Assembly (NCBI RefSeq): GCF_001514065.1
Contig: NZ_KQ948423.1
Span: 558,001 to 622,000 of the forward strand
Direction: 5' to 3'
DNA from: Streptomyces antibioticus
GTDB lineage: Bacteria > Actinomycetota > Actinomycetes > Streptomycetales > Streptomycetaceae
DNA length: 64,000 nucleotides
Shown: positions 5,522-26,824 of the stretch, one piece after another
How the letters are laid out: the number at the start of each line of letters is the position of its first letter
Position numbering within the stretch: position 1 is the stretch's first letter
Position numbers and translations under genes: made by a program
Notes under the pieces: generated by a model
Seen by the model: the letters and a program-made list of their open reading frames with translations, nothing else
What the model was told of the DNA's origin: nothing
Databases searched by the model: none

Positions 5522-6931
5522 ATGTTGAACGCCGTGAAGCGCGTTCTCCTGAGATCCGGTAAGAGTCCCTTCGACGTCGTCGGTGTGGAGGAAGCCCTCC
5601 AGCGGGACGTCATCGGCACCAACTCCGGCAACCTGATCTTCAGCGACGCCGCCCACAAGATCCTGGAGACGCCGGGCACCGAGGTGGTGTCGAACGGCTT
5701 GCGGGCCGACGTGGCGTCGGCGGACCTGATCAACGCGGAGTACGACGCCTTCGTCGTACCGCTTGCGAACGCCTTCCGTCCGTCGTTCGAGCCCGGCCTC
5801 AAGCGGCTGACCCGGCTCATCAGACGGCTGAAGATCCCGGTCGTGGTCACCGGTGTCGGCGCACAGACCGGGCTGAACTACGACTCGTCGCGGCTCAAGC
5901 CCATCGAGCCCGCGGTGCGCGACTTCGTCTCGGCGGTGCTGGACCGCAGCGCCTCGATCGGTGTGCGCGGCGAGTTCACCGAGCGGTACCTCAAGGACAT
6001 GGGCTTCCAGGACGTCGAGGTGATCGGCTGCCCGTCGCTGTTCATGTACGGCAAGGACCTCGCCGTGCACAAGCGGTCGCCGGAACTGACCGCCGAGTCC
6101 CGGATCGCGATCAACGGCTCGCACAGCGCCGTCCGCAAGCAGGGCCTGGGCAAGGTCATCGAGCGCACCCACGCCCGCTACCCGCAGCTGCGCTTCATCG
6201 GCCAGAACCTGTCCGACGCGCGGCAGCTGCACTGGCGGGACCTGTCGGACCCGAACGCCAAGGTCAAGGCGATACCGACGCACCCCGACCACCCGATGTA
6301 CGCCGAGGACAAGGTCCGCGTCTACATCGACCCGGTCACCTGGATCGACGACCTGCGCGGCTTCGACTTCTCCTTCGGCTCGCGCATCCACGGCAACATC
6401 GCCGCGCTGCTCGCCGGGACGCCCGCGACCGTGCTCTCGGGCGACTCCCGGACGCTGGAGCTGTGCCGCTACTTCGACATCCCGCACCTGCGCATCGACA
6501 AGGTGCCCGCGGACCTGGACCCGGCGAAGCTGTACGAGGACGCGGACTTCGGCAAGCTGATGAGCGGTCACCACGAGCGCTACGAGCGGTTCATGGGCTT
6601 CCTCGACCGCAACGGCCTGCAGAACACCTTCACGCACGGCGACGGCGGCGCCGCCTTCGAGGAGCGGCTGCGCAAGCTGTCCTTCCCGGCGGGTGTCCGC
6701 CCCTGGCTGGAGGCCGACCTCGGCTCGCTCGCCGCGCGGATGGCGTTCCTGCAACGCAACGTCGCCGAACTGACCCAGGACAACGAGCGGTTGAGGCGCG
6801 ACCTGGCCCGCGCCAAGACCGGTTCCCGGTCGGGAGGGGCGGGCGGAGTCATCCCGGCGCCGTCGGTCTACCGCCGCGCCCGCCGGGTCGTCGGCGCTCC
6901 GATCCGCCGGGCACTTCAGTCGGGCCGCTGA
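5522..6931 (+). CDS. polysaccharide pyruvyl transferase family protein
   Basis: A 469-residue soluble protein of the PS_pyruv_trans fold, whose members transfer pyruvate from phosphoenolpyruvate to a sugar as a ketal. Visible marks are GTNSGNLIFSDAAHKIL at the start of the domain, IPVVVTGVGAQTGL, a conserved DRSASIGVRGEFTERYLKDMG segment, DVEVIGCPSLFM, and FDFSFGSRIHGNIAALLAGTP with the family's SRIHG-type motif. A short coiled coil (MAFLQRNVAELTQDNERLRRDLARAK) and a basic tail (YRRARRVVG...RRAL) end it, perhaps for membrane or complex docking. The start is ATG 5522. The upstream bases are AT-rich and no strong ribosome-binding site is visible. It diverges from proB and is co-oriented with the polymerase at 7051. 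Pyruvylation of a wall glycopolymer sugar is inferred from context. Confidence 0.88.
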   Translation: MLNAVKRVLLRSGKSPFDVVGVEEALQRDVIGTNSGNLIFSDAAHKILETPGTEVVSNGLRADVASADLINAEYDAFVVPLANAFRPSFEPGLKRLTRLIRRLKIPVVVTGVGAQTGLNYDSSRLKPIEPAVRDFVSAVLDRSASIGVRGEFTERYLKDMGFQDVEVIGCPSLFMYGKDLAVHKRSPELTAESRIAINGSHSAVRKQGLGKVIERTHARYPQLRFIGQNLSDARQLHWRDLSDPNAKVKAIPTHPDHPMYAEDKVRVYIDPVTWIDDLRGFDFSFGSRIHGNIAALLAGTPATVLSGDSRTLELCRYFDIPHLRIDKVPADLDPAKLYEDADFGKLMSGHHERYERFMGFLDRNGLQNTFTHGDGGAAFEERLRKLSFPAGVRPWLEADLGSLAARMAFLQRNVAELTQDNERLRRDLARAKTGSRSGGAGGVIPAPSVYRRARRVVGAPIRRALQSGR

Positions 6932-7050
6932 GCGGACCGGACGTCTTATCACTCCACGGTCGCCCCAAGGCGCCCGGACACGCGCGTGTCGTCCAGTGGT
7001 CGGCGGGCGTTAACCCGGGCGCACGTCCTTGACGACCTTGGAGTGACGCC

Positions 7051-9192
7051 GTGCCCACGAAGAGACTCCGCCGACCCCGGCTGCTCCGCCTCAGACGCCC
7101 GCTGAAGCGTTCCGCCGCCGACAGCCCGAAGAGCCGCCCGCGCCGCAGGCGCCTGCCCCTGCGGCGTGCCGCTCCCCGCGTCCTCGTCACGGCCCTGCTG
7201 GCCGCCGCCTTCGCCGCCCAGGCCGTCGCCGCGTTCGTCCCGGACGTACCGCTGCTGCTCGCCGCCACGGCCGCCTCGGTCGCCGGGGAGGGAGTGCTGC
7301 ACCGGTGGCAGCGGGGCATGGCGATGGTGTTCGCCAAGTCGCACGCCGACATCACCGTCCGGCACGTCCTGCGGGACCTGCTGCTGGTCGCGGGCCTGCT
7401 GCGGGTGGGCGAGCAGGACCGGGAGGGGGTGTACGGCCCGATCGTCGCCGCGCTGCTGCTCTTCTACGCCCTGCACTGCGCGATCCAGGCGGTCTCCGTG
7501 CTGGTCCGCCGCACCCGCACGCTGCCGGTGGTGACCCGGAACATCGACGCCTCCGCGCTCCGCCTGTCGACCGCCCCGCCCGCGCTGCTGCTGCGCCGCC
7601 CCGGGCACCGGCTGCTGGTGTTCGGGCTGCCCGCGACCTTCGGCCTGGCGGCCACCGCGGCGACCGACCACCCGGCCGCCGCGGCCGGCGGGCTCGCGGT
7701 GTCCCTCGTCCTCGGGCTGCTCGGCCTCGGCGAGCTGCTGCTGCGGCTGCTGCCGAGCCGTCGCCCGGCGGGCGAGCAGCAGGTCCTCGACTGGTTCGAC
7801 GCCTGGCTGGCCGACTACCGGCCCACCGTCGGCCTGTACTTCTCCGGCGGCGCGTCCTCGGCCTACCAGGCGAACATGTGGCTGGAGCCGCTGGCCCAGC
7901 TCGACGGGCGGCCGGTCATCGTGCTGCGCGAGCGGTTCATGGTGCAGAAGATCGCCGCGACCGACGTGCCGATCATCTGCCTGCCCAAGGTCACCACCCT
8001 GATGCGCCTGGAGCACTCCACGCTCCAGGTCCTCATCCACCCCTCGAACTCCGGCAAGACCTCCCAGGTGCTGCGCATCCCCACCCTCAAGCACACGTTC
8101 GTCAACCACGGCGAGAGCGACAAGCTGTCCTCGTGCAACCCGTACGCGAAGGCGTACGACGAGGTGTGGGTGGCGGGACCTGCGGCGCGGGAGCGCTACG
8201 CGCTGGCCGAGGTGGGCGTGGACGACCGCGAGGTGCGGGAGATCGGACGGCCGCAGCTGGAGGCCGTACGGCCCTACGCGGGCCCGCCGAAGGGCACGTA
8301 CGCCACCGTCCTGTACGCGCCCACCTGGGAGGGCTGGGACGGCAATCCGGGCAACACCTCCGTCATCGAGGCCGGCGAGAACCTCGTACGGGCGCTGCTC
8401 GCCGATCCCGGCGTACGGCTGCTGTACAAGCCGCATCCGCTCACCGGGTCGGTGGATGCGCGAGCCGGGGCGGCCGATCTGCGCATCCGGGAGCTGATCC
8501 GGGCCGCCAATCGGGCGCGGTCGGGGGCGCGGCCCGCGGTCGGGGGGGAACTGGCCCGGTGCACCGAGGAGTTGGACCGGCTCACCACTGCCGACTTCCG
8601 CACCAGCGCCGACTCGGTGGAGCGGATGATGCTCCAGTCCGCGCCGCCGCGGGGGCGGGCCAGGGCGGTGGAGCGGGCCACGGCGGCCTGGGAGGCGGCG
8701 TACTGGGCCTCGCTGCCGGAGTGGGAGCACCAGATCGTCACCGGTACCCGGCCCGCGCTGTACGCCTGCTTCAACCGGGCCGATCTGCTGGTCAGCGATG
8801 TGTCGAGCGTCGTCAGCGACTTCCTGGCGAGCGGCAAGCCCTACGCGGTGGCCAACACCAGCGGGCTGGGCGAGGACGCCTTCCGCGAGGCGTTCCCGAC
8901 CGTGCGGGCGGCGACCGTGCTCACGCCGGACGCGGCGGGGGTGCCGGGGCTGCTGGACGCCGTACGGCATCCGGAGAAGGACGGGCTCGCCGAGGCGCGG
9001 GCAGAGTTGAAGCGGCATCTGCTGGGGCCGGACGAGCCGTCCTCGCAGGAGCGCTTCAACTCGGCTGTGCAGGCGCTGTGTTCGGCGGCGCGGGAGCATC
9101 GCGTACGGATGGCCGAGCGGCTGGCCGCGGAGATCCCCGCTCCCCGGCCGGCGGATGAGCCGTCCGCCGTCACGCCGCCGCAGCCGGCCTGA
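7051..9192 (+). CDS. membrane-anchored CDP-polyol:polymer phosphotransferase (TagF/TarL-like), paralogue 1
   Basis: A 713-residue protein. An Arg-rich cytoplasmic start is followed by about five hydrophobic segments (about 43-235), then a GT-B type Glyphos_transf domain. Domain marks are VGLYFSGGASSAYQANMW (260-277), KHTFVNHGESDKLSSCNP (347-364, replacing the HGTxLK of TagF), YAPTWEGWDGNPGN (422-435), LLYKPHPLTG (457-466) and VSDVSSVVSDFLASGKPY near the end. Family enzymes move glycerol- or ribitol-phosphate from the CDP form to a growing wall polymer. The GTG start has GGAG 8 bases upstream. The same two-part layout, including a PVxTRNxD motif after the membrane part, recurs in the gene ending at 12646. 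Its 3' end overlaps the convergent gene by 23 bp. The choice between glycerol and ribitol cannot be read from the sequence. Confidence 0.9.
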   Translation: MPTKRLRRPRLLRLRRPLKRSAADSPKSRPRRRRLPLRRAAPRVLVTALLAAAFAAQAVAAFVPDVPLLLAATAASVAGEGVLHRWQRGMAMVFAKSHADITVRHVLRDLLLVAGLLRVGEQDREGVYGPIVAALLLFYALHCAIQAVSVLVRRTRTLPVVTRNIDASALRLSTAPPALLLRRPGHRLLVFGLPATFGLAATAATDHPAAAAGGLAVSLVLGLLGLGELLLRLLPSRRPAGEQQVLDWFDAWLADYRPTVGLYFSGGASSAYQANMWLEPLAQLDGRPVIVLRERFMVQKIAATDVPIICLPKVTTLMRLEHSTLQVLIHPSNSGKTSQVLRIPTLKHTFVNHGESDKLSSCNPYAKAYDEVWVAGPAARERYALAEVGVDDREVREIGRPQLEAVRPYAGPPKGTYATVLYAPTWEGWDGNPGNTSVIEAGENLVRALLADPGVRLLYKPHPLTGSVDARAGAADLRIRELIRAANRARSGARPAVGGELARCTEELDRLTTADFRTSADSVERMMLQSAPPRGRARAVERATAAWEAAYWASLPEWEHQIVTGTRPALYACFNRADLLVSDVSSVVSDFLASGKPYAVANTSGLGEDAFREAFPTVRAATVLTPDAAGVPGLLDAVRHPEKDGLAEARAELKRHLLGPDEPSSQERFNSAVQALCSAAREHRVRMAERLAAEIPAPRPADEPSAVTPPQPA

Positions 9193-10390
9193 CGTCCCGG
9201 GACCGGGACCGGGACGGCAGCGTGCGGCGCGCCTTGCGCACCGCCCGTCGCACGAACGAGTCGAGCCCGCCCTCCCGGTAGCCCGGGACGGCGCGGGCCT
9301 CGCGGGGCTCGGCGAGGTAGAGGGCGTCCGGGATGCCGGCGGCGGTGTCCCGGAAGTGCGGGTAGGCGAAGTACACCCGGCGGCCGCGCTTCTCCAGCAG
9401 TGCCTCGGGCTCCTTCTTGGCCCGCCGGAACTCCAGGAGTTCCAGGAGGAGTTCGGGGCGCTGCTCGGCCACCGCATGCATCCGCAGCCGCTCCTCGACG
9501 CGCAGCCGGTGGGCGACCTCGTCGGTCCAGTACGCGTCCAGCAGCGGCTTCGCCAGCTCGAACTTGTGCCGTCGTACCTCCTCGCTGTCCTTGAGGTACT
9601 TGGGGCCGAACTGCGGGAGCAGGGTGACGACGAACGGGCGGACCATGAGCATGTCGCGGCGCGGGCCCGGCGGGAGCAGGTCGGCGATGAGGGTCATCAG
9701 GGCGCGTGCGGAGTCGAAGCGCAGGGTGTAGCTCCCGCTCTTCGTCACATGCTTGCCGTCCTCACGGCCCACCAGGTAGTAGCAGGTGTAGTCGTCGATG
9801 AGGGAGACGCCGTCGGCCCGCAGATAGGCCTCCATGGTGAACAGGGCGTCCTCACCGGTCCACAGCGACTCGTCGAAGCGCATGCTGTGACGGTTCAGCA
9901 GGTCGCGGCGGAACAGCTTCTGCGCGCTCAGCGTGAACTTGATGTTGGACGACCAGACGTCGGTGCGCTCCAGCGTCCGCCCCCACATGGACTGCGGCGG
10001 CTTGCGGTTGATGCCCTCGACGCGGCCGAGCACCACGTCCGTGCCGTTGCGGTCGGCCATCGCGACCATCCGCTCCAGCGCCTCGGGGCCGAGCCGGTCG
10101 TCGGCGTCGAGGAAGAACACGTACCGCCCGCTCGCCTTGTCCAGGCCGACGTTGCGCGGGCCGCTGGGGCCGCCGGAGTTGTCCTGGCGGACGACGGTGA
10201 CCGGCAGGTCGACGCGGGCGGCGAACGCCTCCAGGCACTCCCCTGTGCCGTCCGTGGAGCCGTCGTCGACCGCGATGACCTCGATGCGGGCGTGGTCCAG
10301 GGTCTGGGCCTCGACGGAGGCGAGGCACTCGACGAGGTAGGGCATCGCTTGGTAGGCGCCGATGACCACGGTCACATCAGGCTGGGTCAC
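9170..10390 (-). CDS. family 2 glycosyltransferase, TarS-like catalytic domain
   Basis: A 406-residue GT-A glycosyltransferase. Motifs are VTVVIGAYQ at the start, VDDGSTDGT (41-49), GGPSGPRNVG (73-82), the metal-binding FLDADD (93-98), GRVEGINRKPPQSMWG, LSAQKLFRRDLL and WTGEDALFTMEAYL with the probable catalytic acidic residues. The spacing of PRNxG, DxDD, the PQSMW region and EDxLF resembles TarS-type enzymes that add sugars to poly(ribitol phosphate). The C-terminal part is helical and basic (RRAVRKARRTLPSRSRSRD), suggesting peripheral membrane binding. The GTG start at 10390 follows a G-rich GGGGGAA. The gene stands between two TagF-like genes, so modification of their polymer is the likely job. 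The transferred sugar is unknown. Confidence 0.9.
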   Translation of the reverse strand: MTQPDVTVVIGAYQAMPYLVECLASVEAQTLDHARIEVIAVDDGSTDGTGECLEAFAARVDLPVTVVRQDNSGGPSGPRNVGLDKASGRYVFFLDADDRLGPEALERMVAMADRNGTDVVLGRVEGINRKPPQSMWGRTLERTDVWSSNIKFTLSAQKLFRRDLLNRHSMRFDESLWTGEDALFTMEAYLRADGVSLIDDYTCYYLVGREDGKHVTKSGSYTLRFDSARALMTLIADLLPPGPRRDMLMVRPFVVTLLPQFGPKYLKDSEEVRRHKFELAKPLLDAYWTDEVAHRLRVEERLRMHAVAEQRPELLLELLEFRRAKKEPEALLEKRGRRVYFAYPHFRDTAAGIPDALYLAEPREARAVPGYREGGLDSFVRRAVRKARRTLPSRSRSRDVRPAAAA

Positions 10391-10517
10391 ATTTCCCCCG
10401 TATCCTCATATTCACAATCAGTCAGACGGTCGAATGCGGTAAGCGGTTGTCTGTGCGCATGGCCTTTGTGAGGCAGGTCACGGACTACAACGACCGTTCC
10501 CCTCTCAGATACGCAAA

Positions 10518-10559
10518 AGGGCCCGGTTTTCGAGAATCACTCCTCGAAAACCGGGCCCT
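10518..10559 (-). terminator. intrinsic terminator after the second TagF-like gene
   Basis: A perfect 17-bp inverted repeat (arms 10518-10534 and 10543-10559, AGGGCCCGGTTTTCGAG and its complement) surrounds an 8-base loop. On the minus strand the stem is followed by TTTTGCG. It lies 38 bp after the stop at 10598, which it presumably terminates, separating it from the glycosyltransferase starting at 10390. Confidence 0.9.
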
Positions 10560-10597
10560 GGGCCGAATGGGCCAGGCCGACGGGTCAGGCCGGCGGG

Positions 10598-12646
10598 TCA
10601 GGCCGTGGTCGCGGCCTCCGCGGCTCCGGCCGCCGCCCGTGACTCCTGGCCGACGTTGCGGGTGTCGGCCTTGCGGGCCAGATCCGCCACCGCGGTGTTG
10701 AACTGCTCGATGGACGTGGGCTCGTCCGGGCCCAGCAGGTACTGCTTGAGCTCCTTGCGGTCCTCGGCCAGCGGGTCGCCGGCGGGGTCGCGGACCGCGC
10801 TCAGCAGCTCGCCCAGCTCGGCGGCGCTGTTGGACAGGATCGTGGCCGCCCGCACCGCCGTGTTCTGCCGCTTGAACTCCTCCACGCCCAGCTCGGCGGA
10901 GTCCGTCACCGCGTACGGCTTGCCGCTCGCGATGAAGTCGGAGACCACGGAGGAGATGTCGGAGACCATCGCGTCGGAGACGTTGAAGCAGTCGTACAGC
11001 CGCGGCTCGGCGCCGGTGATGACGCGGTGCTCCCACACCGGGAAGGAGCGCCAGTAGGCGTCGTTCCACTCGTTGCGCAGCCGGGCGATCTCTTCGTGCT
11101 TGACGGGGTCGATGAGCCCGTCACGGGTGGCCTCGGCCTCGTCGCCCTTCTCGCCGCCGTTGCCGGACAGCTGGGCGATCCGCGCCTCGATGCGGGTCAG
11201 CTCGGCCTTGGCCTGCGCCTGGGCGGCGGCGTCCGCGGTGAAGCGGGCGTCGGTGGCGCGGGCCGCGGCGGCCTTCTCGACCAGCGCGGTGATGCGCGCG
11301 TGGGCGGCGCCCGCCTCCTTGCTGACCGTGCCCGTGAAGGGGTGCGGCTTGTAGAGGATGCGGACCGGCGGGTCGGCCTTGATCAGCTTCTTGACGATGT
11401 TCTCTCCGGCCAGCACCAGGGAGGTGTTGCCGGGGTTGCCGTCCCAGCCCTCCCAGGTCGGCGCGTAGAGCACCGTGGGCACGCCCTCGGGCACGCCCTG
11501 CCCGGTCTGGATGGGCGCCAGCTGCGGGCGGCCGACCTCCACGATGTCGTCGTCGCGGACACCGACGTCGGCGATGGCGTAGCGGTCGCGGCCCGCGCGG
11601 CCGGCGGTCCACACCTCGTCGTACACCTTGCTGAACGGGTTGACGCTGGCCAGCTTGTCGCTGTCGCCGTGGCCGATGAAGACGTGCTTCATGGTCGGCA
11701 CGCGCAGCAGGTGGATGTTCTTGCCGACGTTCGCCGCGTACAGCGCGACGCGCACGGTCGACAGGTCCATGTTCATCAGGTGCACCCCTCCGGGCACGCA
11801 GATGACGGGGACCGTGGTCGGCGCCAGGTTGTTCAGTATCGCCCGCTCACGCAGGATGATCAGCGGCTTGGAGTCCAGCTGCTCCATGGTCTCCAGCCAC
11901 ATGTTGACCTGGTACGCCGAGTCCTTGGAGCCGGAGAAGTACAGCACCGTCTCGGGCCGGTAGCCGGCCAGCCAGTCGTCGACCGCGGCCAGCACCTTCT
12001 CCGCGTTCGGCGGGATCTTGCTGCCGCGGACGTACGGCATGAGCGCGAGGACGTACAGGGTGCCCAGCACTATCGTCGCGCCGATGCCGATGAACGCCGC
12101 GAGGGTGTCGTCCATGAACGCGGAGACCAGCACGCCGACGACGGCGAACAGGTCGAGGTGCAGCATCTTCTCCGCGGAGCGGTTGAGCAGGCGGCGCGGC
12201 GGGGCGTCCGGGATGCGGATCCGTGCGGCCAGGTCGACGTTGCGGGTGGCGACCGGCATCCGGCGGCGGTTGCGGATCAGGGTGACCAGCGCGCCGTGCG
12301 GGGCCTGGAGGCCGTAGAACGCGATGAAGCAGGCGACCGCCCCGTAGAAGACGATGCCGTCCGCGAGATCCAGGCGAGCCAGCAGCAGGATCAGCAGCAG
12401 CTGCCGGATCAGGAAGCGGATCGACAGACCCGCGCGCACCTTGCTCAGGCGGTTGATCAGATAGCTGCTCTTGCGATGCAGATAGTGGTCCGCCAGGTAC
12501 GTCACTGCGGCCGCGGCCGCGAAGGCGGGGACGCTCGGGACGAGCGCGGCCAGCATGAGCACAGGGAAGCCCAGGATCATGAGGGCCGCCGCGGCCAGCT
12601 CGGCCGCACTGCCCACCCGGGCGACGCGAATGGCTCTGGTTATCAC
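10598..12646 (-). CDS. membrane-anchored CDP-polyol:polymer phosphotransferase (TagF/TarL-like), paralogue 2
   Basis: A 682-residue paralogue of the 7051-9192 product. Hydrophobic segments fill about residues 14-55, 78-120 and 165-205. IRNRRRMPVATRNVD (124-138) matches RRTRTLPVVTRNID in the paralogue. The GT-B domain has VLYFSGSKDSAYQVNMW, KHVFIGHGDSDKLASVNP (320-337), LYAPTWEGWDGNPGN, RILYKPHPFTG and VSDISSVVSDFIASGKPY. A helical insertion rich in Ala/Glu/Lys (about 480-540) separates the last two motifs. The start is the GTG at 12646 (MITRAIRVARVG) after a weak AGG; the open frame to 12766 is not family-like. Expected role: adds polyol phosphate units to a wall polymer at the inner membrane face. 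The linked CDP-ribitol synthase-like gene just upstream suggests ribitol, but this is inference. Confidence 0.9.
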   Translation of the reverse strand: MITRAIRVARVGSAAELAAAALMILGFPVLMLAALVPSVPAFAAAAAVTYLADHYLHRKSSYLINRLSKVRAGLSIRFLIRQLLLILLLARLDLADGIVFYGAVACFIAFYGLQAPHGALVTLIRNRRRMPVATRNVDLAARIRIPDAPPRRLLNRSAEKMLHLDLFAVVGVLVSAFMDDTLAAFIGIGATIVLGTLYVLALMPYVRGSKIPPNAEKVLAAVDDWLAGYRPETVLYFSGSKDSAYQVNMWLETMEQLDSKPLIILRERAILNNLAPTTVPVICVPGGVHLMNMDLSTVRVALYAANVGKNIHLLRVPTMKHVFIGHGDSDKLASVNPFSKVYDEVWTAGRAGRDRYAIADVGVRDDDIVEVGRPQLAPIQTGQGVPEGVPTVLYAPTWEGWDGNPGNTSLVLAGENIVKKLIKADPPVRILYKPHPFTGTVSKEAGAAHARITALVEKAAAARATDARFTADAAAQAQAKAELTRIEARIAQLSGNGGEKGDEAEATRDGLIDPVKHEEIARLRNEWNDAYWRSFPVWEHRVITGAEPRLYDCFNVSDAMVSDISSVVSDFIASGKPYAVTDSAELGVEEFKRQNTAVRAATILSNSAAELGELLSAVRDPAGDPLAEDRKELKQYLLGPDEPTSIEQFNTAVADLARKADTRNVGQESRAAAGAAEAATTA

Positions 12647-12727
12647 GGAGGAACCTGCTCTTGGAGGGGGAGTGCCGGTTTTGTTCTGTGGTGCGGCGAA
12701 AATGTGAGGAATTCGCGAGAGGTACTG

Positions 12728-12778
12728 ATTCAGGCCCCTGCGAATGCTCCGATAACGGGCAGACACAGAGGCCTGAAT
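12728..12778. promoter_or_regulatory. interrupted palindrome upstream of the second TagF-like gene
   Basis: Perfect 9-bp arms ATTCAGGCC (12728-12736) and GGCCTGAAT (12770-12778) continue inward with CTG/CAG after one mismatch, around a loop of about 26 bases. The dyad lies 82-132 bp before the GTG at 12646 and just after the stop of the cytidylyltransferase gene (12802). It could be a terminator-like stem or an operator. There is no U-tract, and the flank is unusually AT-rich. Confidence 0.45.
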
Positions 12779-12801
12779 AACAGATGTCTAATTGCAGTTG
12801 A

Positions 12802-14301
12802 TTATGCCACGCCGTCCTGACGGTCCAGAACGGAGGCCAGCGCCTGCTCGAAGCCGGAGGCCTTGCCCGCGGCGGCGGTCGGGTCCTGCTGGCGGACGTC
12901 GATGACATGTCCGGTCAGCTCGGACAGCAGCACGTCCAGCGACGTACGGGCCACGACCTCGGAGGACAGCAGCGAACCGGCCGGCTCCTGACCGAAGGCC
13001 TTGGTGCGCATCGGGGTCGCGGTGCGCTCCGGGTTCACGCAGTTCACGCGGATGCCGTCGCCCGCCCACTCGTCGGACAGGGCCTGGGTGAGGTTCACCA
13101 TCGCGGCCTTGGTGGAGGAGTAGAGGCTGTACTCGGCGCGGCCGCGGGTGTAGCTGCTGGAGGTGTAGAGGAGCAGCTGGCCCTTGGTCTCGGACAGGTA
13201 CTTGTACGACGAACGGGCGATCTGCACCGGGGCCAGGTAGTTGACCTTCAGCGCTTCCTCGATGGTCGCGTTGTCGGTCTCGGCCAGCTTGCCGATGCGC
13301 AGCACGCCGGCGGTGTTGACGACGTAGTCGATGCGCCCGGTCTCGGCGTACGCCTTGGACAGCGCGTCGTCGACCTCCTCGGGGTTCTCGACGTGCGTGC
13401 CGGTGGTGGAGCGGCCCAGCGCGTAGACCTTCGCGCCGTAGGACTCGGCGAGTTCGGCGATGTCCTTGCCGATGCCGTACGAACCGCCGAAGACGACCAT
13501 GGTCTTGCCGGTCAGCAGCTCGCGGTAGGCCTCCTCGGAGACCTGCTCGGGCGCGGCGGTGGAGGCCAGCTGGAACAGTTTGTCGGCGATGAAGACGTCG
13601 ACGGGCTGGGTGACCTTCATGTTGTACTCGTCGCCCGCGACGACGTGGATCGGCACGTCCGGCAGGTACTTGAGCACGACCGAGCAGTCGTCCGTGGCCT
13701 GGAAGTTGGGGTCACCGGAGGCGACCTCGTAGGCCCGCTTGATCGTGGACAGCTTGAAGGCCTGCGGCGTCTGGCCGCGGCGCAGCCGGGAGCGGTCCGG
13801 GATCTCGGTGATGAACTCGCCGTCCTCGCCGTGGGTGCGGGTCACGATGATGGTGTCCGCGGACGGGATGGCGACGTCGACGGCCTGGAAGCGCTCCAGG
13901 GCGACCACGCAGTCGTCGATGACGCGCTGCGAGAGAAGGGGGCGAACGGCGTCGTGGAACAGGACGTTGAGGTCCTCGCCCTCGGCCAGGCCCTCACCGA
14001 GCGCCTCGATGGCGCGCTCGGTGGTCTCGTTCCGCGTGGAACCGCCCTCGATGATCTTCTTGACCTTCGTGAACCCGGCCTTGGCCACGATCTTCTCTAT
14101 GTCCGGCACGTAGCCCGGCGCCATCAGGACGATGATGTCGTCGATCGAGTCGGCGTTCTCGAAGGTGGTCAGGGTGTGCTCGATGACTGCCTTGCCGGCG
14201 ATCTTCAGCAGCTGCTTGGGGATCGAGAGACCCACGCGCTGACCGGTACCGCCGGCCAGGATCACTGCGGTGGTACGGGGCTTGGCGATGTGCTGGGACA
14301 C
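12802..14301 (-). CDS. bifunctional cytidylyltransferase / short-chain reductase (Bcs1-like CDP-ribitol synthase)
   Basis: A 499-residue fusion. Residues 12-240 are an IspD/TarI-type nucleotidyltransferase: AVILAGGTGQRVGLSIPKQL (dinucleotide-phosphate loop), VLFHDAVRPLLSQRVIDDC, SADTIIVTR and RLRRGQTPQAFKLSTI. Residues from about 267 are a short-chain dehydrogenase: MVVFGGSYGIGKDIAEL (cofactor loop), YVVNTAGVL, YTSSSYTRG and YSLYSSTKAAM (Tyr/Lys pair), IRVNCVNPERTATPM. The same domain order is known in Haemophilus Bcs1, which reduces ribulose 5-phosphate and activates ribitol 5-phosphate to CDP-ribitol. The GTG start at 14301 has AGGTAGG 6 bases upstream. Its neighbours are TagF-like polymerases, so supplying their CDP-activated polyol is the natural reading. 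A different reduced polyol phosphate is possible. Confidence 0.88.
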   Translation of the reverse strand: MSQHIAKPRTTAVILAGGTGQRVGLSIPKQLLKIAGKAVIEHTLTTFENADSIDDIIVLMAPGYVPDIEKIVAKAGFTKVKKIIEGGSTRNETTERAIEALGEGLAEGEDLNVLFHDAVRPLLSQRVIDDCVVALERFQAVDVAIPSADTIIVTRTHGEDGEFITEIPDRSRLRRGQTPQAFKLSTIKRAYEVASGDPNFQATDDCSVVLKYLPDVPIHVVAGDEYNMKVTQPVDVFIADKLFQLASTAAPEQVSEEAYRELLTGKTMVVFGGSYGIGKDIAELAESYGAKVYALGRSTTGTHVENPEEVDDALSKAYAETGRIDYVVNTAGVLRIGKLAETDNATIEEALKVNYLAPVQIARSSYKYLSETKGQLLLYTSSSYTRGRAEYSLYSSTKAAMVNLTQALSDEWAGDGIRVNCVNPERTATPMRTKAFGQEPAGSLLSSEVVARTSLDVLLSELTGHVIDVRQQDPTAAAGKASGFEQALASVLDRQDGVA

Positions 14302-14594
14302 AGGTGACCTACCTCGGGGCGACAGGGAACTCCGAAATGGTCCCACTTGGGGTTACCGCAGTGCAAGGTGAGCGCCGTCCGCCGCATATGTGCGCGCTAC
14401 CTGTCATTCACCTTGTACTCCTGGTGATTGAGGAGACCGTTGTGGCGAGCTCCTTGGAATTGCTGTGAGTAACTCCACAGGAGTTACGTATTGCTGTGTG
14501 TGACGAGAGTACCGCGGATTAAGATTCCGCAGCATTTCGGTCTCGGCCGGAGCCGCCCCTGCGCACACTCCCGTCACACACGCTTCATCCCCGG
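14302..14594. other. 293-bp intergenic region with two dyads
   Basis: No gene is seen between phoD and the cytidylyltransferase gene. The region is AT-richer than its surroundings. It holds a perfect hairpin GTAACTC-CACAG-GAGTTAC (14469-14487) and a near-perfect dyad GCGGATT-AAG-ATTCCGC (14514-14530). Either could be an operator for the minus-strand polymer genes or a 3' structure of the phoD transcript. A transcription start cannot be placed with confidence. Confidence 0.5.
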
Positions 14595-16145
14595 TCAGGC
14601 GAGCTCGACGCCCGGCTGTCCCGCCTCCACCCGCAGCGCGGCCAGCGTGCTCGCCGTCGCGGTCGGCTGCCGGACCGTGTCCACGACCCTGATCTGGGCG
14701 TCGATGCCGTGCTTGTCGATGTCGAACAGGTGGTAGCCGCGGTGGGCGTCGATCAGCTTCCAGTGCGGGTTGTCCGCCGTCAGCGGGTCCCACTGGGCGT
14801 GGAAGGCGGCCTGGTCCTGGTCGCCGTTGCTGGAGATGGAGGTGCCGACGAACTCGGCGCCGACGACGTCCGAGTCCGGGTCGGCGAAGTCCTTCTTGAG
14901 GTCGCTGATCATCGTCAGATGACGGTCGCCGGAGAACACGACGGGATTGCGGACGTCCTCGAACTCGGCGAGGAACTGGTTGCGTTCGGCCTGGTAGCCG
15001 TCCCAGGCGTCGTAGTACCACTGCTTGCCCTCGCCCGGCAGGATGTCCGTCTCGGCCATCATGATCTGCGAGGCGATGAGGTTCCAGCGGGCGGGCGAGT
15101 CGTGCAGTCCGTCGAGCAGCCACTGCTTCTGCTCGGCGCCGAGCATGGTGAGCGACGGGTCCTTCGCCGCCTCCTGGCCGGTCACCTGGTCGCTGCGGAA
15201 CTGCCGGGTGTCCAGCACGTTGAGGCGGGCGAGGCGGCCGAACTCCAGGCGCCGGTACATCTGGATGTGCGGCCCGTTCGGCACCGAGGTCGCTCGGACC
15301 GGCATGTGCTCGTAGTACGCCTGGTAGGCCGCGGTCAGACGGGCCACGAAGGCGTCGTGCGTCTGCTTGTCGGGGTCCTGCGGGATCTCGCCGGCGAAGT
15401 CGTTGTCGACCTCGTGGTCGTCGAAGGTGACGACCCAGGGCGCGTTCGCGTGCATCGCGGCGAGGTCGGGGTCGGTGCGGTACTGGGCGTAGCGGTTGCG
15501 GTACTGGACCAGGCTGTACGGCTCACCGGTCCCCTCGTGGCGGCGTACGCCCGTCGAGGACGGCGTCGACTCGTAGATGTAGTCGCCCACGAAGAGCACG
15601 ACGTCGGGGTCCTGGGCGAGCATGTCGGCGTACGGGGTGAAGTAGCCGTGCTGCCAGTTCTGGCAGGACGCGAGCGCGACGCGCAGGCTGCCGCCCTTGC
15701 TGTGCGGGTGCGGGGCGGTGCGGGTGCGGCCGGTCGGCGAGAGCTGCCCGCCGGTGCGGAAGCGGTACCAGTACGCACGTCCCGGGCGCAGGCCCCGTAC
15801 ATCCACGTGAACGCTGTGCCCGTACTCGGGCCGGGCCTGGGCGACACCGCGGCGGACGGGCTTTCTGAAGCGCTCGTCCTCGGCGAGCTCCCACTCCACG
15901 GGGACCGCGCGGTCGGGCATGCCGCCCCCGTGCAGCGGGTCCGGGGCGAGCCGCGTCCACAGCACGATGCCGTCGGGAAGCGGGTCACCGGAGGTCACGC
16001 CCAGGCTGAACACCCCGTCGGGCAGGGGGGTCTCGGCTGCCCGGGCGGCCGTCGGCAGCCACAGCTGGGCGGAGGCGGCGGCGCCGAGCACGGCGGCCCC
16101 GGCGGTCAGAAAGCGGCGGCGGTCGGGCGAAACTGCTCCGGTCAT
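14595..16145 (-). CDS. phoD: Tat-exported PhoD-family alkaline phosphatase/phosphodiesterase
   Basis: A 516-residue secreted metallophosphoesterase. The twin-arginine signal SPDRRRFLTAGAAVLG and a hydrophobic stretch ending at ARAAE mark Tat export of a folded enzyme. Metal-site motifs of the family are present: FVGDYIYES, WVVTFDDHEVDNDFAG, NLIASQIMMAET and VFSGDRHLTM. The ATG at 16145 has GGGAG 7 bases upstream. Known for the family: a Ca/Fe-dependent phosphodiesterase/monoesterase, and Bacillus PhoD attacks wall teichoic acid. Lying beside wall-polymer synthesis genes, it may recover phosphate from the same polymer. No convincing PHO box (repeated GTTCACC) was found upstream, although PhoD genes are usually phosphate-regulated. 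Confidence 0.94.
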   Translation of the reverse strand: MTGAVSPDRRRFLTAGAAVLGAAASAQLWLPTAARAAETPLPDGVFSLGVTSGDPLPDGIVLWTRLAPDPLHGGGMPDRAVPVEWELAEDERFRKPVRRGVAQARPEYGHSVHVDVRGLRPGRAYWYRFRTGGQLSPTGRTRTAPHPHSKGGSLRVALASCQNWQHGYFTPYADMLAQDPDVVLFVGDYIYESTPSSTGVRRHEGTGEPYSLVQYRNRYAQYRTDPDLAAMHANAPWVVTFDDHEVDNDFAGEIPQDPDKQTHDAFVARLTAAYQAYYEHMPVRATSVPNGPHIQMYRRLEFGRLARLNVLDTRQFRSDQVTGQEAAKDPSLTMLGAEQKQWLLDGLHDSPARWNLIASQIMMAETDILPGEGKQWYYDAWDGYQAERNQFLAEFEDVRNPVVFSGDRHLTMISDLKKDFADPDSDVVGAEFVGTSISSNGDQDQAAFHAQWDPLTADNPHWKLIDAHRGYHLFDIDKHGIDAQIRVVDTVRQPTATASTLAALRVEAGQPGVELA

Positions 16146-19338: not shown

Positions 19339-19371
19339 GGTGCTCCGGTTGAGTGGGAGTGAAGAGGAGGG

Positions 19372-23281: not shown

Positions 23282-23875
23282 TCACCCGCCGAGACCGGCC
23301 CGGTACGCCACGCACTCCTCGTACGAGGGCAGCAGCCCCTGCTCACGGGCCTGGGCCAGGCTCGGCGCCTGCTCGTCCTTGGCGGACAGCAGCGGGGCGA
23401 CGTCGGCGGGCCACTCGATACCGAGCTCCGGATCGAGCGGGTGGATGCCGTGCTCCCGCTCGGGGGCGTAGCCCTCGGAGCACAGGTAGACCACGGTCGC
23501 GTCGTCGGTCAGCGCCATGAAGCCGTGGCCGAGGCCCTCGGAGAGGTAGACGGCGTGGTGGTCCTGGTCGTCCAGGCGGACGATCTCCCACTGGCCGAAG
23601 GTGGGCGAGCCGACCCGGATGTCCACGATCACGTCGAGGACCGCGCCGCGCACGCACTTGACGTACTTGGCCTGGCCGGGCGGCACGTCCGCGAAGTGGA
23701 TGCCGCGCAGGGTGCCCCGGCTGGAGACGGACATGTTGGCCTGGGCGAGGGTGAGCGGGTGGCCGGCCGCCTCGGTGAAGAGGGGGGCCTTGAACCACTC
23801 GTGGAAGCTGCCCCGGCCGTCGGGGAAGACCTTCGGCTCGTGCACCCAGGAGCCGGAAATCGAAAGAGGTCGCAT
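23282..23875 (-). CDS. rmlC: dTDP-4-dehydrorhamnose 3,5-epimerase (RmlC)
   Basis: Third step of dTDP-L-rhamnose synthesis. The 197-residue cupin carries the catalytic histidine in SRGTLRGIHFADVP, then GQAKYVKCVRGAVLDVIVDIRVGSPTFGQW, DDQDHHAVYLSEGLGHGFMAL and VVYLCSEGYAPEREHGIHPLD, all typical of RmlC. The ATG at 23875 follows AGAGG by 8 bases; an in-frame GTG immediately before it is an alternative. It closes the rml operon, about 50 bp after the glycosyltransferase. Confidence 0.95.
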   Translation of the reverse strand: MRPLSISGSWVHEPKVFPDGRGSFHEWFKAPLFTEAAGHPLTLAQANMSVSSRGTLRGIHFADVPPGQAKYVKCVRGAVLDVIVDIRVGSPTFGQWEIVRLDDQDHHAVYLSEGLGHGFMALTDDATVVYLCSEGYAPEREHGIHPLDPELGIEWPADVAPLLSAKDEQAPSLAQAREQGLLPSYEECVAYRAGLGG

Positions 23876-23924
23876 CACAGGGTCCTCTGCTCTTCTGCTG
23901 CGGAGGTCGTCATCACAGGCATCA

Positions 23925-25931
23925 TCATCGGCTCTTCCTCGGCTGGTTCGTCAGGGCCCGCTTGACGCGTCCGGCGACCCGGCGCCACAGCGGCCGCGGC
24001 GGGGCGGGCTGCTTGGGCTTCGGCGCCGGTTTCGGGGCGGGCTTCGCCGGCGGAATGTGGCGGTCGATGACCTCGGCGGTGCCGTCGGCCGCGACGACCA
24101 CGTCGACCGGGAGCCGGGTCCACCTCGGTTCGCCCCGGGAGGCGGACGGCAGCCCGAGCCGGACCGCCCAGCGCGCCCCGGTGAGCCGCTCGGCCGGCAG
24201 CTTCGCGGTCACGGAACGGCCGTCCGCCACGGCGTCGGCGGCGAACTTGCCGACCTCCTTGCGCTCGAAGCGCAGCTGTACGGCCTCCTCGCCGGTCACC
24301 GCGAGCGGCAGCGGAAGCCGCACGGTCGCCCCCTCGGCCACCACCGCCGCGGCCGGGTCCACCAGCACCACGGCCTCGCGCTCGAGCTTGCCGGTGTGCT
24401 GGTCGACGTCGAGGGAGAGGTTCCCGGGTCCGTCGGTCCAGTACGGCAGCACGAGCCGGCGCGGTTCACCGGTGAGCGCGGCCAGCCGCCCGGGCTCCAC
24501 GCCCTCGCCGTGCACCGCGCCGATCCGGCACTCCTTGCTCCAGCCGCCGGCCTTGATGCGCAGGTGGAAGTCCCAGATGCCCTTGGTCAGGGGCGAGCCC
24601 CCGGCGGCCGTCTCGGGGTCGAGCACGGCGGTCGCGGTGATCCGCTGCCGGAAGGCGCCTTCCGCTTCGGCGTCGACCTCGTGCCGCTCGCTCTTCAGCG
24701 GCAGGTAGTACTGGGTGGCGTCGTCGCGATTGCGGATCACGAGGTCGACATCGCTCTCGCCGGTCCGGGCGTCCAGCGTGATGCCCTGCCCGTCCAGCGC
24801 CTCGCGCGCCTTCTCGGAGAGCGGCAGGTCGAGGACGTCGCGCTCGCCGTCCCGGCGGAAGACGAGAGGGCTGCCGCCGGACTCGTACTCGGCCCCGAAG
24901 CCGATGTTCAGGCGACCGTTCTCCCAGGTCAGGGAGGTCAGCTCGCCGGTGGGCCGGATCGCGGCCTCCCACTGGGCGAGCTCGCGGATGTCGTCGTAGA
25001 GGTCGGCGGAGACGAGGCCCGCGACGACCCGCTGCATCGGGTCGACGTGGGTGAGGACGCCGGGTCCGAAGCGCTCGACGACCACCCCGCGGATCTCGCG
25101 GTAGAGCTCCTCGGCGTAATCCTCGGGGAGCTTCAGCAGCCGGTTGCCGCGCAGCCGCTCGACCATCTCGACGCGCAGCCAGCGGCTGAACAGCCGGTCG
25201 CGCAGGGGGCCGGGCTCGGTGAGCTCCTCGACCACGTCGAGGGCCTCGCGGAGGTTGCCGAAGTAGCCGGCCGGGTCGAAGCGCTGGAAGCCCGCGTTGG
25301 AGCCGTCGTCGCGGGCGATGTGGTAGTAGCACAGGTAGTCGCCGAGGACGGCGACGCTCTTGGCCCGCAGATACGCCTCGACGACGAAGACGTGGTCCTC
25401 CAGGCGCCGGCGCCCTTCCTTGAACCGGATGCCGTGCTCGGCGAGGAACTCCCGCCGGAACATCTTGTGCGGGGTGAGGCTGTCGATCAGCGGTGCGTTC
25501 TCGACCGTGGCACGCGGCCGGTTGACCCGGAACAGCTCCTGCGGCACCGGCCGTCCGATGCCCGCCATCTTGCCGATGACGACATCGGCGTCGTGCGCCG
25601 TGCCGTAGTCGTACATCCTCTCCAGGGCCTCGTCGCCCAGCCAGTCGTCGTGGTCGACGAACATGACGTACTCGCCCCGGGCGGCGTCGATACCGGTGTT
25701 GCGGGGCTTGCCCGACCAGCCGGAGGCCTCCTGGTGCACGACGTGGAAGTGCGGGTGCTCGGCCGCGAGCGCGTCGAGCCGGGCCGGGGTCTCGTCGGTG
25801 GAGCCGTCGTCGACGAAGAACACCTCGAACTCGTCGGCCGGCAGGCTCTGCCGCAGCAGACCGCCGATGCAGTCCTCGACGTACTTGCCGGGGTTGTGCA
25901 CCGCGATGACCACGCTGACCTTGACGGTCAC
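23925..25931 (-). CDS. TarS-like family 2 glycosyltransferase with C-terminal beta domains
   Basis: A 668-residue protein. Its GT-A domain has VSVVIAVHNPGKYVEDC, VDDGSTDETP (40-49), SGKPRNTGIDAARGEYVMF, VDHDD (92-96), IGKMAGIGRPVPQELFR, LTPHKMFRREFL and RRLEDHVFVVEAYLRA. This motif series closely resembles Staphylococcus TarS, which glycosylates poly(ribitol phosphate). About 320 residues after the catalytic part look like tandem beta modules (RNRDDATQYYLPLKSERHEV, TKGIWDFHLRIKAGGW), as in TarS trimerisation regions. A Pro/Lys linker and basic tail (RRVAGRVKRALTNQPRKSR) end it. The GTG start overlaps the rmlD stop by 4 bases (GTGA), so it is translationally coupled to the rhamnose genes. Donor specificity is not visible; rhamnose is only a contextual guess. 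Confidence 0.9.
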   Translation of the reverse strand: MTVKVSVVIAVHNPGKYVEDCIGGLLRQSLPADEFEVFFVDDGSTDETPARLDALAAEHPHFHVVHQEASGWSGKPRNTGIDAARGEYVMFVDHDDWLGDEALERMYDYGTAHDADVVIGKMAGIGRPVPQELFRVNRPRATVENAPLIDSLTPHKMFRREFLAEHGIRFKEGRRRLEDHVFVVEAYLRAKSVAVLGDYLCYYHIARDDGSNAGFQRFDPAGYFGNLREALDVVEELTEPGPLRDRLFSRWLRVEMVERLRGNRLLKLPEDYAEELYREIRGVVVERFGPGVLTHVDPMQRVVAGLVSADLYDDIRELAQWEAAIRPTGELTSLTWENGRLNIGFGAEYESGGSPLVFRRDGERDVLDLPLSEKAREALDGQGITLDARTGESDVDLVIRNRDDATQYYLPLKSERHEVDAEAEGAFRQRITATAVLDPETAAGGSPLTKGIWDFHLRIKAGGWSKECRIGAVHGEGVEPGRLAALTGEPRRLVLPYWTDGPGNLSLDVDQHTGKLEREAVVLVDPAAAVVAEGATVRLPLPLAVTGEEAVQLRFERKEVGKFAADAVADGRSVTAKLPAERLTGARWAVRLGLPSASRGEPRWTRLPVDVVVAADGTAEVIDRHIPPAKPAPKPAPKPKQPAPPRPLWRRVAGRVKRALTNQPRKSR

Positions 25932-26824
25932 GCCGTGTTCTCCTTCGTCTGGACCCGGTGGATCTCCGGGAAGGCCTCGGTGAGCGCCGCACGCCAGTCC
26001 CGCAGGGGCGGGATACCGGCCGCCGCGAAGCGGTCGTGGCCGAGGACGCTGTAGGCCGGGCGGGGGGCGGGGCGGACGAAGGCCTCGCTGGTGGTGGGGC
26101 GGACCCGGTCGGGGTCGGTGCCGAGCAGCCGGAAGATCTCCCGGGTGAGGCCGTACCAGGTCGTCTCGCCGGAGCTGGTGCCGTGGTAGACACCGGCCGG
26201 GGCGGTGCCGGCCAGGGCGCCGCGGCCCAGCTCGTAGAGGAGTCCGGCGAGATCGGCGCTCCAGGTGGGCTGGCCGCGCTGGTCGTCGACGACGTCCAGG
26301 GTGTCCTTGAGCCCCTCCAGCTTGATCATCGTACGGACGAAGTTGGGGCCGCCCGTGCCGTACAGCCAGGCCGTGCGCACCACATAGCCGCGCTCGATGC
26401 CGAGCACGGCCCGTTCGCCGGCGAGCTTGGTGCGGCCGTAGGCGCTGCGCGGGGCGGTGGGGGCGTCCTCGGCGTACGGGGTGGTGGCGTCGCCCGCGAA
26501 GACGTAGTCGGTGGAGACGTGCAGGAGGACGGCGCCGGTGGTGACGCAGGCGGCGGCGAGATGCGCGGGGCCGTCGCCGTTGATGCGCAGCGCCTCCTCC
26601 TCGTGGCTCTCGGCGTCGTCGACGGCGGTCCAGGCCGCGCAGTTGACGACGACCGCGGGCCGGTGCGTCTCGATCGTGCCGCGCACGGCGTCGGCGTCGG
26701 TGAGGTCGAGGGCGGCACGGTCGAGGGCGACGGTCTGCTCGCCCGCCTCGGCGAGCCGGGCCAGGACGTCCTGGCCGAGCATGCCGCCCGCGCCGGTGAC
26801 CAGCCAGATGCGGTTGTCGGTCAC
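25928..26824 (-). CDS. rmlD: dTDP-4-dehydrorhamnose reductase (RmlD)
   Basis: Last step of dTDP-L-rhamnose synthesis, reducing the 4-keto sugar with NAD(P)H. The 298 residues show the Rossmann loop VTGAGGMLGQDVL, VVVNCAAWTAVDDAE, LLHVSTDYVFAGD, the YGRTKLAGE Tyr/Lys pair and VVRTAWLYG, all typical of RmlD. The GTG at 26824 overlaps the rmlB stop as GTGA; the open frame upstream to 26878 lies inside rmlB. It is preceded and followed by 4-base overlaps, indicating strict co-translation. Confidence 0.96.
   Translation of the reverse strand: MTDNRIWLVTGAGGMLGQDVLARLAEAGEQTVALDRAALDLTDADAVRGTIETHRPAVVVNCAAWTAVDDAESHEEEALRINGDGPAHLAAACVTTGAVLLHVSTDYVFAGDATTPYAEDAPTAPRSAYGRTKLAGERAVLGIERGYVVRTAWLYGTGGPNFVRTMIKLEGLKDTLDVVDDQRGQPTWSADLAGLLYELGRGALAGTAPAGVYHGTSSGETTWYGLTREIFRLLGTDPDRVRPTTSEAFVRPAPRPAYSVLGHDRFAAAGIPPLRDWRAALTEAFPEIHRVQTKENTA

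What the first reader, a model, noticed from the sequence alone, without database searches (positions are those of the whole stretch)
5522..16145. A compact wall-glycopolymer locus predicted to make, decorate and recycle a polyol-phosphate polymer
Six neighbouring genes encode a pyruvyltransferase-fold protein, two TagF/TarL-like enzymes, a TarS-like glycosyltransferase, a Bcs1-like CDP-ribitol synthase and a Tat-exported PhoD. Together with the rml operon 12 kb away they could form a complete pathway for a pyruvylated, glycosylated poly(ribitol or glycerol phosphate). No TagA/TagB/TagG/TagH-like priming or export gene is in the window, so those steps must lie elsewhere.
Basis: partly seen in the sequence, partly recalled or inferred. 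Interest (0 to 1): 0.72.

Follow-up and report, generated by a model that had tools for sequence, protein, structure and literature searches.

The report
Streptomyces ribitol teichoic-acid locus, pyruvyl module
This is the usual place where Streptomyces keep genes for a ribitol-phosphate cell-wall polymer, here with an optional extra gene that probably attaches pyruvate to that polymer; the polymer locus is known, and the new part is how closely the pyruvate gene travels with the ribitol genes across many actinobacteria.

Summary
Six intact genes lie at 5522-16145 of a Streptomyces genome: a PF04230 (pyruvyltransferase-family) protein, two TagF-like proteins with hydrophobic N-termini, a TarS-like glycosyltransferase, an IspD-SDR (TarIJ/Bcs1-type) fusion and a twin-arginine PhoD. 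The obgE neighbourhood is a known Streptomyces wall teichoic acid locus; S. griseus, with TarIJ and TagF at the counterpart place, has NMR-shown ribitol-phosphate teichoic acid. So the polyol-phosphate reading is right and ribitol is favoured.

TarS, TagFb, Bcs1 and PhoD are the core; PyrT and TagFa are independent optional cassettes (of 72 loci: 21 both, 24 TagFa only, 14 PyrT only, 13 neither). PyrT is nearly confined to genomes with the CDP-ribitol synthase: 47 of 48 PyrT genomes among 295 Streptomyces (149 have Bcs1), 31 of 34 among 394 actinomycetes (72 have Bcs1). I infer that PyrT ketal-pyruvylates this polymer, on ribitol or its side sugar; no chemistry was seen.

In print already: a pyruvyltransferase gene after tarIJL in Tetragenococcus, and pyruvylated poly(ribitol phosphate) in Nocardiopsis metallicus. 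The rml operon is optional. A TagGH-like pair lies about 520 kb away, an LCP gene about 3 kb outside the window.

The parts
5522..6931 (+). PyrT: PF04230 polysaccharide-pyruvyltransferase-family protein (469 aa from ATG 5522)
   Evidence: PF04230 70 bits, cut-off 25.3; 25 of 25 aligned homologues match PF04230; R-x-H-G and RG motifs invariant in 25 rows; start codon
7051..9192 (+). TagFa: TagF-like CDP-polyol phosphotransferase with hydrophobic N-terminal segments; optional cassette
   Evidence: PF04464 23 bits, cut-off 22.1; HG, KPHP and DVSSVVSDF motifs; hydropathy
9170..10390 (-). TarS-like GT2 glycosyltransferase with TarS linker domain
   Evidence: PF00535 and PF22181; S. aureus TarS structure chain 5tze E 1e-40
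10598..12766 (-). TagFb: TagF/TarL-like putative ribitol-phosphate polymerase with hydrophobic N-terminal segments
   Evidence: PF04464 36 bits; AlphaFold model pLDDT 81.6; Foldseek TagF 3l7j E 5e-7, TarL 8va1 E 6.5e-5; 18 of 18 orthologue-bearing genomes of 61 carry Bcs1
12802..14346 (-). Bcs1/TarIJ-type IspD-SDR fusion: predicted CDP-ribitol synthase
   Evidence: NF001183 D-ribitol-5-phosphate cytidylyltransferase 168.6 bits, cut-off 166; 4jis and 6xhp best PDB relatives
14595..16145 (-). PhoD-like phosphodiesterase/phosphatase with twin-arginine signal (RRRFL)
   Evidence: PF09423 342 bits; linkage to block; signal motif
23282..28874 (-). rml operon (RmlC, TarS-like GT 23925-25931, RmlD, RmlB, RmlA-type): neighbouring optional module, membership of the pathway not shown
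   Evidence: Pfam; patchy in relatives

Best explanation
A Streptomyces ribitol-phosphate wall teichoic acid locus with an optional pyruvylation cassette. Bcs1 reduces D-ribulose-5-phosphate (SDR domain) and activates the ribitol-5-phosphate with CTP to CDP-ribitol (IspD domain). TagFb, held in the membrane by its N-terminal helices, transfers and polymerises ribitol-5-phosphate on a lipid-linked primer; TagFa adds a second polyol-phosphate step or polymer. The TarS-like enzyme glycosylates the polymer. PyrT transfers pyruvate from PEP as a ketal to the polymer, probably 2,4 on ribitol and otherwise on the side sugar. A TagGH-like ABC pair encoded elsewhere exports it, an LCP ligase attaches it, and exported PhoD cleaves it for remodelling or phosphate recovery. 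Shown here: gene content, families, linkage. Inferred: every reaction. Rough sub-probabilities: ribitol-phosphate polymer 0.85; PyrT acts on this polymer 0.65; on ribitol itself 0.45.
For: Ribitol-5-phosphate cytidylyltransferase model over cut-off. TarS-like: S. aureus TarS as best PDB relative, with DDGSTD, SGGP..PRN, DADD and ED motifs. TagFa and TagFb carry HG, APTW, KPHP and D-x-SSVVSDF motifs in TagF order; H366 and H475 of TagFb are invariant in 44 rows. TagFb with Bcs1 in 18 of 18 TagFb genomes of 61. PyrT with Bcs1: 47 of 48 PyrT genomes of 295 Streptomyces (Fisher 4.5e-15); 31 of 34 of 394 actinomycetes (Fisher 9e-23). In 44 of the 48 Streptomyces genomes a PyrT copy lies within 15 kb of Bcs1. 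Of 19 further PyrT regions (18 outside the genus) nine hold Bcs1, three of those nine also TagG- and TagH-like genes. L149 and L150 hold AT3-SGNH acyltransferase, PyrT, TagFb, Bcs1 with no TarS homologue in 20 kb. S. griseus, whose TagF (SGR_4957) and TarIJ (SGR_4956) genes lie by L21/L27, has NMR-shown ribitol-phosphate WTA (PMC13274773, sections 8, 9, 45 and passages). N. metallicus has poly(ribitol phosphate) with 2,4-pyruvate ketals (PMC6801904 passages).
Against: No chemistry exists for this strain. The Fisher values ignore shared ancestry. The PyrT AlphaFold model failed (pLDDT 45) and no solved relative was found by sequence, so PEP binding is untested. The three ketal-pyruvyltransferases that the 2019 review calls characterised act on sugars (PMC6801904). 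The family is broad: 88 plasmid records, many proteobacterial, hold PyrT relatives at under 60% identity, and an E. faecium plasmid relative sits in a tagD (glycerol) cluster, so it is not ribitol-only. In 10 of 19 further PyrT regions Bcs1 is not nearby. L149 also has a DUF6716 putative glycosyltransferase about 5.6 kb from PyrT. TagFa is only just over the Pfam cut-off, and TagFb fell under it in the whole-genome search (21.1 of 22.1 bits). hhalign of the TagF-like alignment against the genome's canonical TagF aligned only 28 columns, and its PDB profile search gave ribosomal-protein hits (E 0.00085) ahead of a TagF-like polymerase (E 0.38). The top Foldseek match is a UDP-GlcNAc epimerase, so the fold search shows GT-B, not TagF specifically. 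No lipid-linked primer synthesis was traced.
Confidence: 0.62

Rival explanations
1. PyrT pyruvylates the sugar that the TarS-like enzyme (or another GT) adds, for example a 4,6-ketal on a HexNAc, not the ribitol.
For: Characterised ketal-pyruvyltransferases act on sugars. TarS is in 79 of 80 Streptomyces loci. E. faecium plasmid cluster tagD-TagF-GT-PyrT-wecB, where a 1,3-glycerol-phosphate backbone leaves no diol for a ketal (established chemistry).
Against: PyrT sits with TagFb and Bcs1 without a TarS homologue in four regions of unnamed genus g38, L149-L152; a ribitol ketal is known chemically.
Confidence: 0.3
2. PyrT modifies a different wall polymer (teichulosonic acid, galactan or poly(diglycosyl phosphate)) and merely sits here.
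For: Pyruvylated Kdn and galactose polymers exist in actinobacteria; in G173, G451 and G480 PyrT lies far from Bcs1.
Against: 47 of 48 and 31 of 34 co-occurrence with Bcs1; within 15 kb in 44 of 48 genomes.
Confidence: 0.12
3. The PF04230 protein is not a pyruvyltransferase but another transferase of this fold.
For: Far under the CsaB equivalog cut-off (23 of 213 bits); no structure or PEP-site test succeeded.
Against: PF04230 70 bits; R-x-H-G and RG motifs invariant; that these are the PEP-binding motifs is recalled.
Confidence: 0.12
4. The block mainly makes poly(glycerol phosphate), with CDP-ribitol used for a minor unit.
For: TagFa orthologues (61-78% identity) without Bcs1 in 7 of 13 obg regions of Bcs1-negative genomes.
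Against: TagFb never without Bcs1 in 18 genomes; ribitol WTA in S. griseus and S. antibioticus.
Confidence: 0.1

Closest known systems
Streptomyces WTA locus beside L27/L21 (S. griseus SGR_4956 TarIJ, SGR_4957 TagF; PMC13274773)
   Same: TarIJ-type fusion and TagF-like polymerase at the same genomic place by gene order; variable decoration genes; ribitol-phosphate WTA by NMR in that species
   Different: Here a PF04230 gene, a second TagF-like gene, a TarS-like GT and PhoD on the proB side, and an rml operon with a TarS-like GT where, by locus-tag order, S. griseus has utr genes; 'pyruv', 'rhamn' and 'PhoD' do not occur in that main text (figures and supplements not readable). No sequence of S. 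griseus was compared here
S. coelicolor SCO2589, SCO2590, SCO2592 (named as WTA genes in PMC3937824, citing Kleinschnitz 2011, which is not held)
   Same: WTA-type transferase genes; the same chromosomal position is recalled, not tested
   Different: Gene-by-gene orthology not tested; the passages read name no CDP-ribitol synthase or pyruvyltransferase there
S. aureus tarIJL-tarS
   Same: CDP-ribitol synthesis, TagF-family polymerase, TarS GT
   Different: Single-chain IspD-SDR fusion; polymerases carry N-terminal hydrophobic segments; TarS-like protein is 406 aa against 572; PyrT added
[quoted passage not shown]
   Same: Pyruvyltransferase next to CDP-ribitol and TarL genes; those authors already pointed to the N. 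metallicus polymer
   Different: One Bacillota strain; not compared here by sequence
CsaB / Pvg1p / WcfO ketal-pyruvyltransferases
   Same: PF04230 domain and presumed PEP chemistry
   Different: Far under the CsaB model cut-off; acceptor predicted to be a polyol-phosphate polymer

Membership tests
Bcs1/TarIJ CDP-ribitol synthase | ribitol-5-phosphate cytidylyltransferase domain scoring over the curated cut-off | tested here: met
   NF001183 168.6 of 166 bits; ispD TIGR00453 167.0 of 181.3, not met
Bcs1/TarIJ CDP-ribitol synthase | fused SDR reductase with GxxxGIG and S-Y-K residues | tested here: met
   PF00106 110 bits; GGSYGIG 287, SSSY 396, YSSTK 409; motif roles recalled
Bcs1/TarIJ CDP-ribitol synthase | makes CDP-ribitol | not testable with these tools
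   needs an assay
TagF/TarL polymerase (PF04464) | Pfam gathering score | tested here: met
   TagFb 36.2, TagFa 23.0, cut-off 22.1; in the whole-genome search TagFb scored 21.1, under it, and TagFa was not listed
TagF/TarL polymerase (PF04464) | two catalytic histidines | tested here: inconclusive
   HG and KPHP histidines invariant in 44 rows; equivalence to TagF H444 and the second catalytic histidine rests on motif order, read by eye against the TagF chain printed
TagF/TarL polymerase (PF04464) | GT-B TagF fold | tested here: met
   Foldseek 3l7j E 5.1e-7, TM(target) 0.50; UDP-GlcNAc epimerases score alike
TarS | GT2 domain plus TarS linker, active-site motifs | tested here: met
TarS | C-terminal trimerisation region | tested here: not met
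   by length only: 406 aa against the 572-residue chain 5tz8; phmmer match ends at residue 226, linker domain at 318
ketal-pyruvyltransferase (PF04230) | Pfam gathering score | tested here: met
   70.1 of 25.3 bits
ketal-pyruvyltransferase CsaB | NCBIfam equivalog cut-off | tested here: not met
   23.1 of 213.1 bits
ketal-pyruvyltransferase (PF04230) | PEP-binding site geometry | tested here: inconclusive
   model pLDDT 45
Bacillus-type PhoD | NCBIfam equivalog cut-off | tested here: not met
   536.5 of 1000 bits; PF09423 domain itself 342 bits
Streptomyces L21/L27-side WTA locus | TarIJ and TagF next to obg and ribosomal L27/L21 genes | tested here: met
   obgE 20938-22383 identified; block-to-obg order conserved; rpmA and rplU at 22501-23171 assigned by position, not scanned

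The most novel reading that the evidence does not exclude
PyrT defines a teichoic-acid branch of the PF04230 family whose acceptor is the ribitol of poly(ribitol phosphate): the first genetically identified polyol-ketal pyruvyltransferases, switched on and off between close Streptomyces species as a surface-epitope cassette (7 changes on the TagFb tree, 6 of them forced) and so a candidate determinant of recognition by phages or umbrella-toxin lectins.
Probability: 0.4. Interest if true: 0.62.

Novelty: new variant of a known kind. Interest (0 to 1): 0.45.

Why it matters
A pyruvate ketal on ribitol-phosphate teichoic acid has been known chemically (N. metallicus), and the 2019 review (PMC6801904, passages) says that the genetic determinants are unknown for most pyruvylated glycoconjugates. 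A gene found with CDP-ribitol synthase in 31 of 34 actinomycete genomes gives a testable enzyme for it. In S. griseus and S. antibioticus a glycan carried by this kind of polymer is a toxin receptor (PMC13274773), so an on/off anionic decoration could matter for who can attack whom.

Tried and rejected
Tried without result: PyrT AlphaFold model, pLDDT 45, from an alignment of 22 close rows; PDB sequence searches for PyrT; TagF-like profile against PDB, whose ribosomal-protein hits I reject as chance; hhalign against the genome's canonical TagF, 28 columns; plasmid searches for PyrT (88 records, all under 60% identity; the 20 listed rows hold no actinobacterium) and Bcs1 (3 records, one of them Nonomuraea).

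Considered and rejected: rml operon as an obligatory part (patchy); PhoD as a chance neighbour; TagFa as obligatory partner of PyrT (21/24/14/13 of 72).

Rows dropped and thresholds. PyrT in 35 of 80 loci: at least 55% identity and 250 residues. PhoD in 71 of 74: at least 60% identity and 60 residues; two of the 71 (L080, L099) rest on a best piece of 63 and 93 residues. Tree: 63 of 72 loci, those with an extracted TagFb frame. Bcs1-negative regions: 13 of the 18 Bcs1-negative Streptomyces; one of them, L169, is cut off at the side where PhoD would lie. Class sample: PyrT at E 1e-10, Bcs1 at E 1e-80; five PyrT matches are weak (G201, G309, G357, G419, G432), and for the first four the Bcs1 match covers only the IspD part; without these five the count is 27 of 29. 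Regions were fetched for 17 of the 24 PyrT genomes outside the genus, plus one Streptomyces (G173) and one Bcs1 region without PyrT (G012). Genus sample: PyrT at E 1e-60, Bcs1 at E 1e-120; where a genome has two PyrT copies the one nearest to Bcs1 was used for distance.

Papers: PMC13274773, sections 8, 9, 45 in full and passages; PMC6801904, PMC9045211, PMC11481543, PMC3937824, PMC6629963, PMC13118837, passages only; Kleinschnitz 2011 and Sigle 2016 not held, nothing seen. What I take to be unpublished rests on searches in an open-access library only.
Full report
What is there. The window lies in a 10.1-Mb, about 70% GC genome (G000, contig C2: 558001-622000). The 80 best loci found with its TagFb protein in named genomes (a capped list) are all Streptomyces, nearest S. 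justiciae and S. sp. GKU 895 (97% identity). Between proA/proB and obgE are, in order: PyrT (+), TagFa (+), TarS-like (-), TagFb (-), Bcs1 (-), PhoD (-), then two FG-GAP proteins and obgE.

Families. PyrT: PF04230, 70 bits, all 25 aligned homologues match; not the CsaB equivalog. TagFa and TagFb: weak PF04464, 44% identical to each other, with N-terminal hydrophobic segments; the TagFb model (pLDDT 81.6, pTM 0.75) has long N-terminal helices and a GT-B part that matches TagF 3l7j (E 5e-7) and TarL with CDP-ribitol 8va1 (E 6.5e-5), but UDP-GlcNAc epimerases as well. The TagF-type motifs are conserved. TarS-like: best solved relative S. aureus TarS (E 1e-40). Bcs1: IspD-SDR fusion over the curated ribitol-5-phosphate cytidylyltransferase cut-off. 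PhoD: PF09423, with RRRFL twin-arginine signal.

Core and cassettes. Of 80 loci, 79 hold Bcs1 and 79 TarS. Of the 72 that reach both proB and TarS, 21 have TagFa and PyrT, 24 TagFa only, 14 PyrT only, 13 neither: the two are independent cassettes between TarS and proB. In L061, L076, L084 and L098 a 661-677-aa gene fills the PyrT place; the three of these four that were scanned are PF04464 proteins. On a TagFb tree of 63 loci PyrT presence needs 7 changes, 6 forced by well-supported branches, against 21 for shuffled labels. PhoD is in 71 of 74 loci that hold Bcs1 and obg, and was not found in the obg regions of 13 Streptomyces without Bcs1; 12 of these 13 regions reach the side of obg where PhoD would lie (L169 does not). 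TagFa orthologues occur in 7 of the 13, so TagFa does not depend on CDP-ribitol from Bcs1.

PyrT follows the CDP-ribitol synthase. Relatives: PyrT in 5 of 61 genomes, all 5 with Bcs1 (19 of 61). Genus: PyrT in 48 of 295, Bcs1 in 149 of 295, both in 47; the exception, G596, is an 81%-complete draft. Class: PyrT in 34 of 394, Bcs1 in 72 of 394, both in 31; PyrT carriers lie in families f1, f19, f28, f34, f38 and f39, and those without Bcs1 are G333 and G441 (f19) and G432 (f38). Fisher P values 4.5e-15 and 9e-23 ignore shared ancestry. In 44 of the 48 genus genomes a PyrT copy lies within 15 kb of Bcs1 on the same contig. Of 20 further regions fetched, 19 contain PyrT, 18 of them outside the genus and one from Streptomyces G173; in 9 of the 19 Bcs1 lies in the same 20 kb or less (L148-L152, L154, L156, L162, L165), and L154, L162 and L165 also hold TagG- and TagH-like genes. 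In L149 and L150 the group is AT3-SGNH acyltransferase, PyrT, TagFb, Bcs1; no TarS homologue was found in 20 kb there or in L151 and L152. All 13 other predicted ORFs of L149 were scanned: one is a DUF6716 putative glycosyltransferase about 5.6 kb from PyrT. Of the 11 others of L150, 5 were scanned and none is a glycosyltransferase. The 10 regions without Bcs1 include L153 and L167, where PyrT lies beside other TagF-like, GT-like and RmlB-like genes.

Rest of the pathway. A GT2-TagF fusion (C2: 1.089-1.092 Mb, PF04464 389 bits) lies about 5 kb from a pair of ABC2-membrane and ABC-ATPase genes, the likely TagGH, about 520 kb from the block. There are three PF00953 genes, one PF03808 (TagA/WecG) gene and twelve LCP matches in the genome; one LCP match lies at C2: 554560, about 3 kb before the window. 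S. coelicolor PdtA (SCO2578) is an LCP protein that attaches a minor glycopolymer (PMC11481543); that this is its orthologue is recalled from gene order, not tested.

What is known. PMC3937824 names SCO2589, SCO2590 and SCO2592 among S. coelicolor WTA genes. PMC13274773 locates WTA genes (TagF SGR_4957, TarIJ SGR_4956) near L21/L27 in S. griseus, reports 1,5-linked ribitol phosphate in S. griseus and S. antibioticus WTA by NMR, and shows that a TarS-like UtrC is needed for a glycan on ribitol that serves as toxin receptor. PMC9045211 notes a putative pyruvyltransferase after tarIJL in T. halophilus and cites N. metallicus. PMC6801904 gives the N. metallicus structure and counts three studied ketal-pyruvyltransferases.

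Verdict. Chemistry and acceptor remain inferred.

Noticed in passing
window 17875-20778 (-): Two tandem FG-GAP repeat proteins (487 and 468 aa) with hydrophobic N-termini between PhoD and obgE; found, missing or diverged in related loci. Could bind wall glycans; Pfam shows no trypsin-like domain.
   Followed up: partly
window 23925-25931 (-): A second TarS-like GT (TarS_linker 117 bits; 39% identical to the first over 266 residues) inside the rml operon, where by locus-tag order S. griseus has utr genes; may attach a rhamnose-containing glycan to ribitol.
   Followed up: partly
L114:17301-19556 (G000 C2 about 1.089 Mb): The genome's only strong PF04464 protein (GT2-TagF fusion) has arginine where the S. 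epidermidis TagF chain has its HG histidine (QTRRGTPLK against QTWHGTPLK; H444 by recall and the H444N entry name), so it may not act as a classical polymerase.
   Followed up: partly
L175-L178 (Bcs1-negative Streptomyces, obg region): Where the block is missing, the neighbourhood of obg carries other wall-polymer-like genes (TarS-like, GT2-TagF-like, RmlB-like; tblastn): a hot spot of glycopolymer cassettes.
   Followed up: no
L166 (G012), L151: Alternative pair: a 72% or 65% Bcs1 next to a TagF3-type polymerase; L151 has two Bcs1 and two PyrT copies.
   Followed up: no
L183 (E. faecium plasmid p1525-a, about 58-67 kb): A PyrT relative (34.5%) sits in tagD, TagF-family, GT, PyrT, wecB flanked by insertion sequences: a possibly mobile teichoic-acid cassette.
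   Followed up: partly
L182 (Bacillus altitudinis 7.2-kb plasmid): A PyrT relative (33%) is the only gene with a carbohydrate-related annotation on a small mobilizable plasmid of 8 annotated genes.
   Followed up: no
L116:10618-12660 (G000 C4 about 652 kb): A third TagF-like gene of the same type (46% to TagFb) beside Exo_endo_phos and NlpC/P60 proteins.
   Followed up: no
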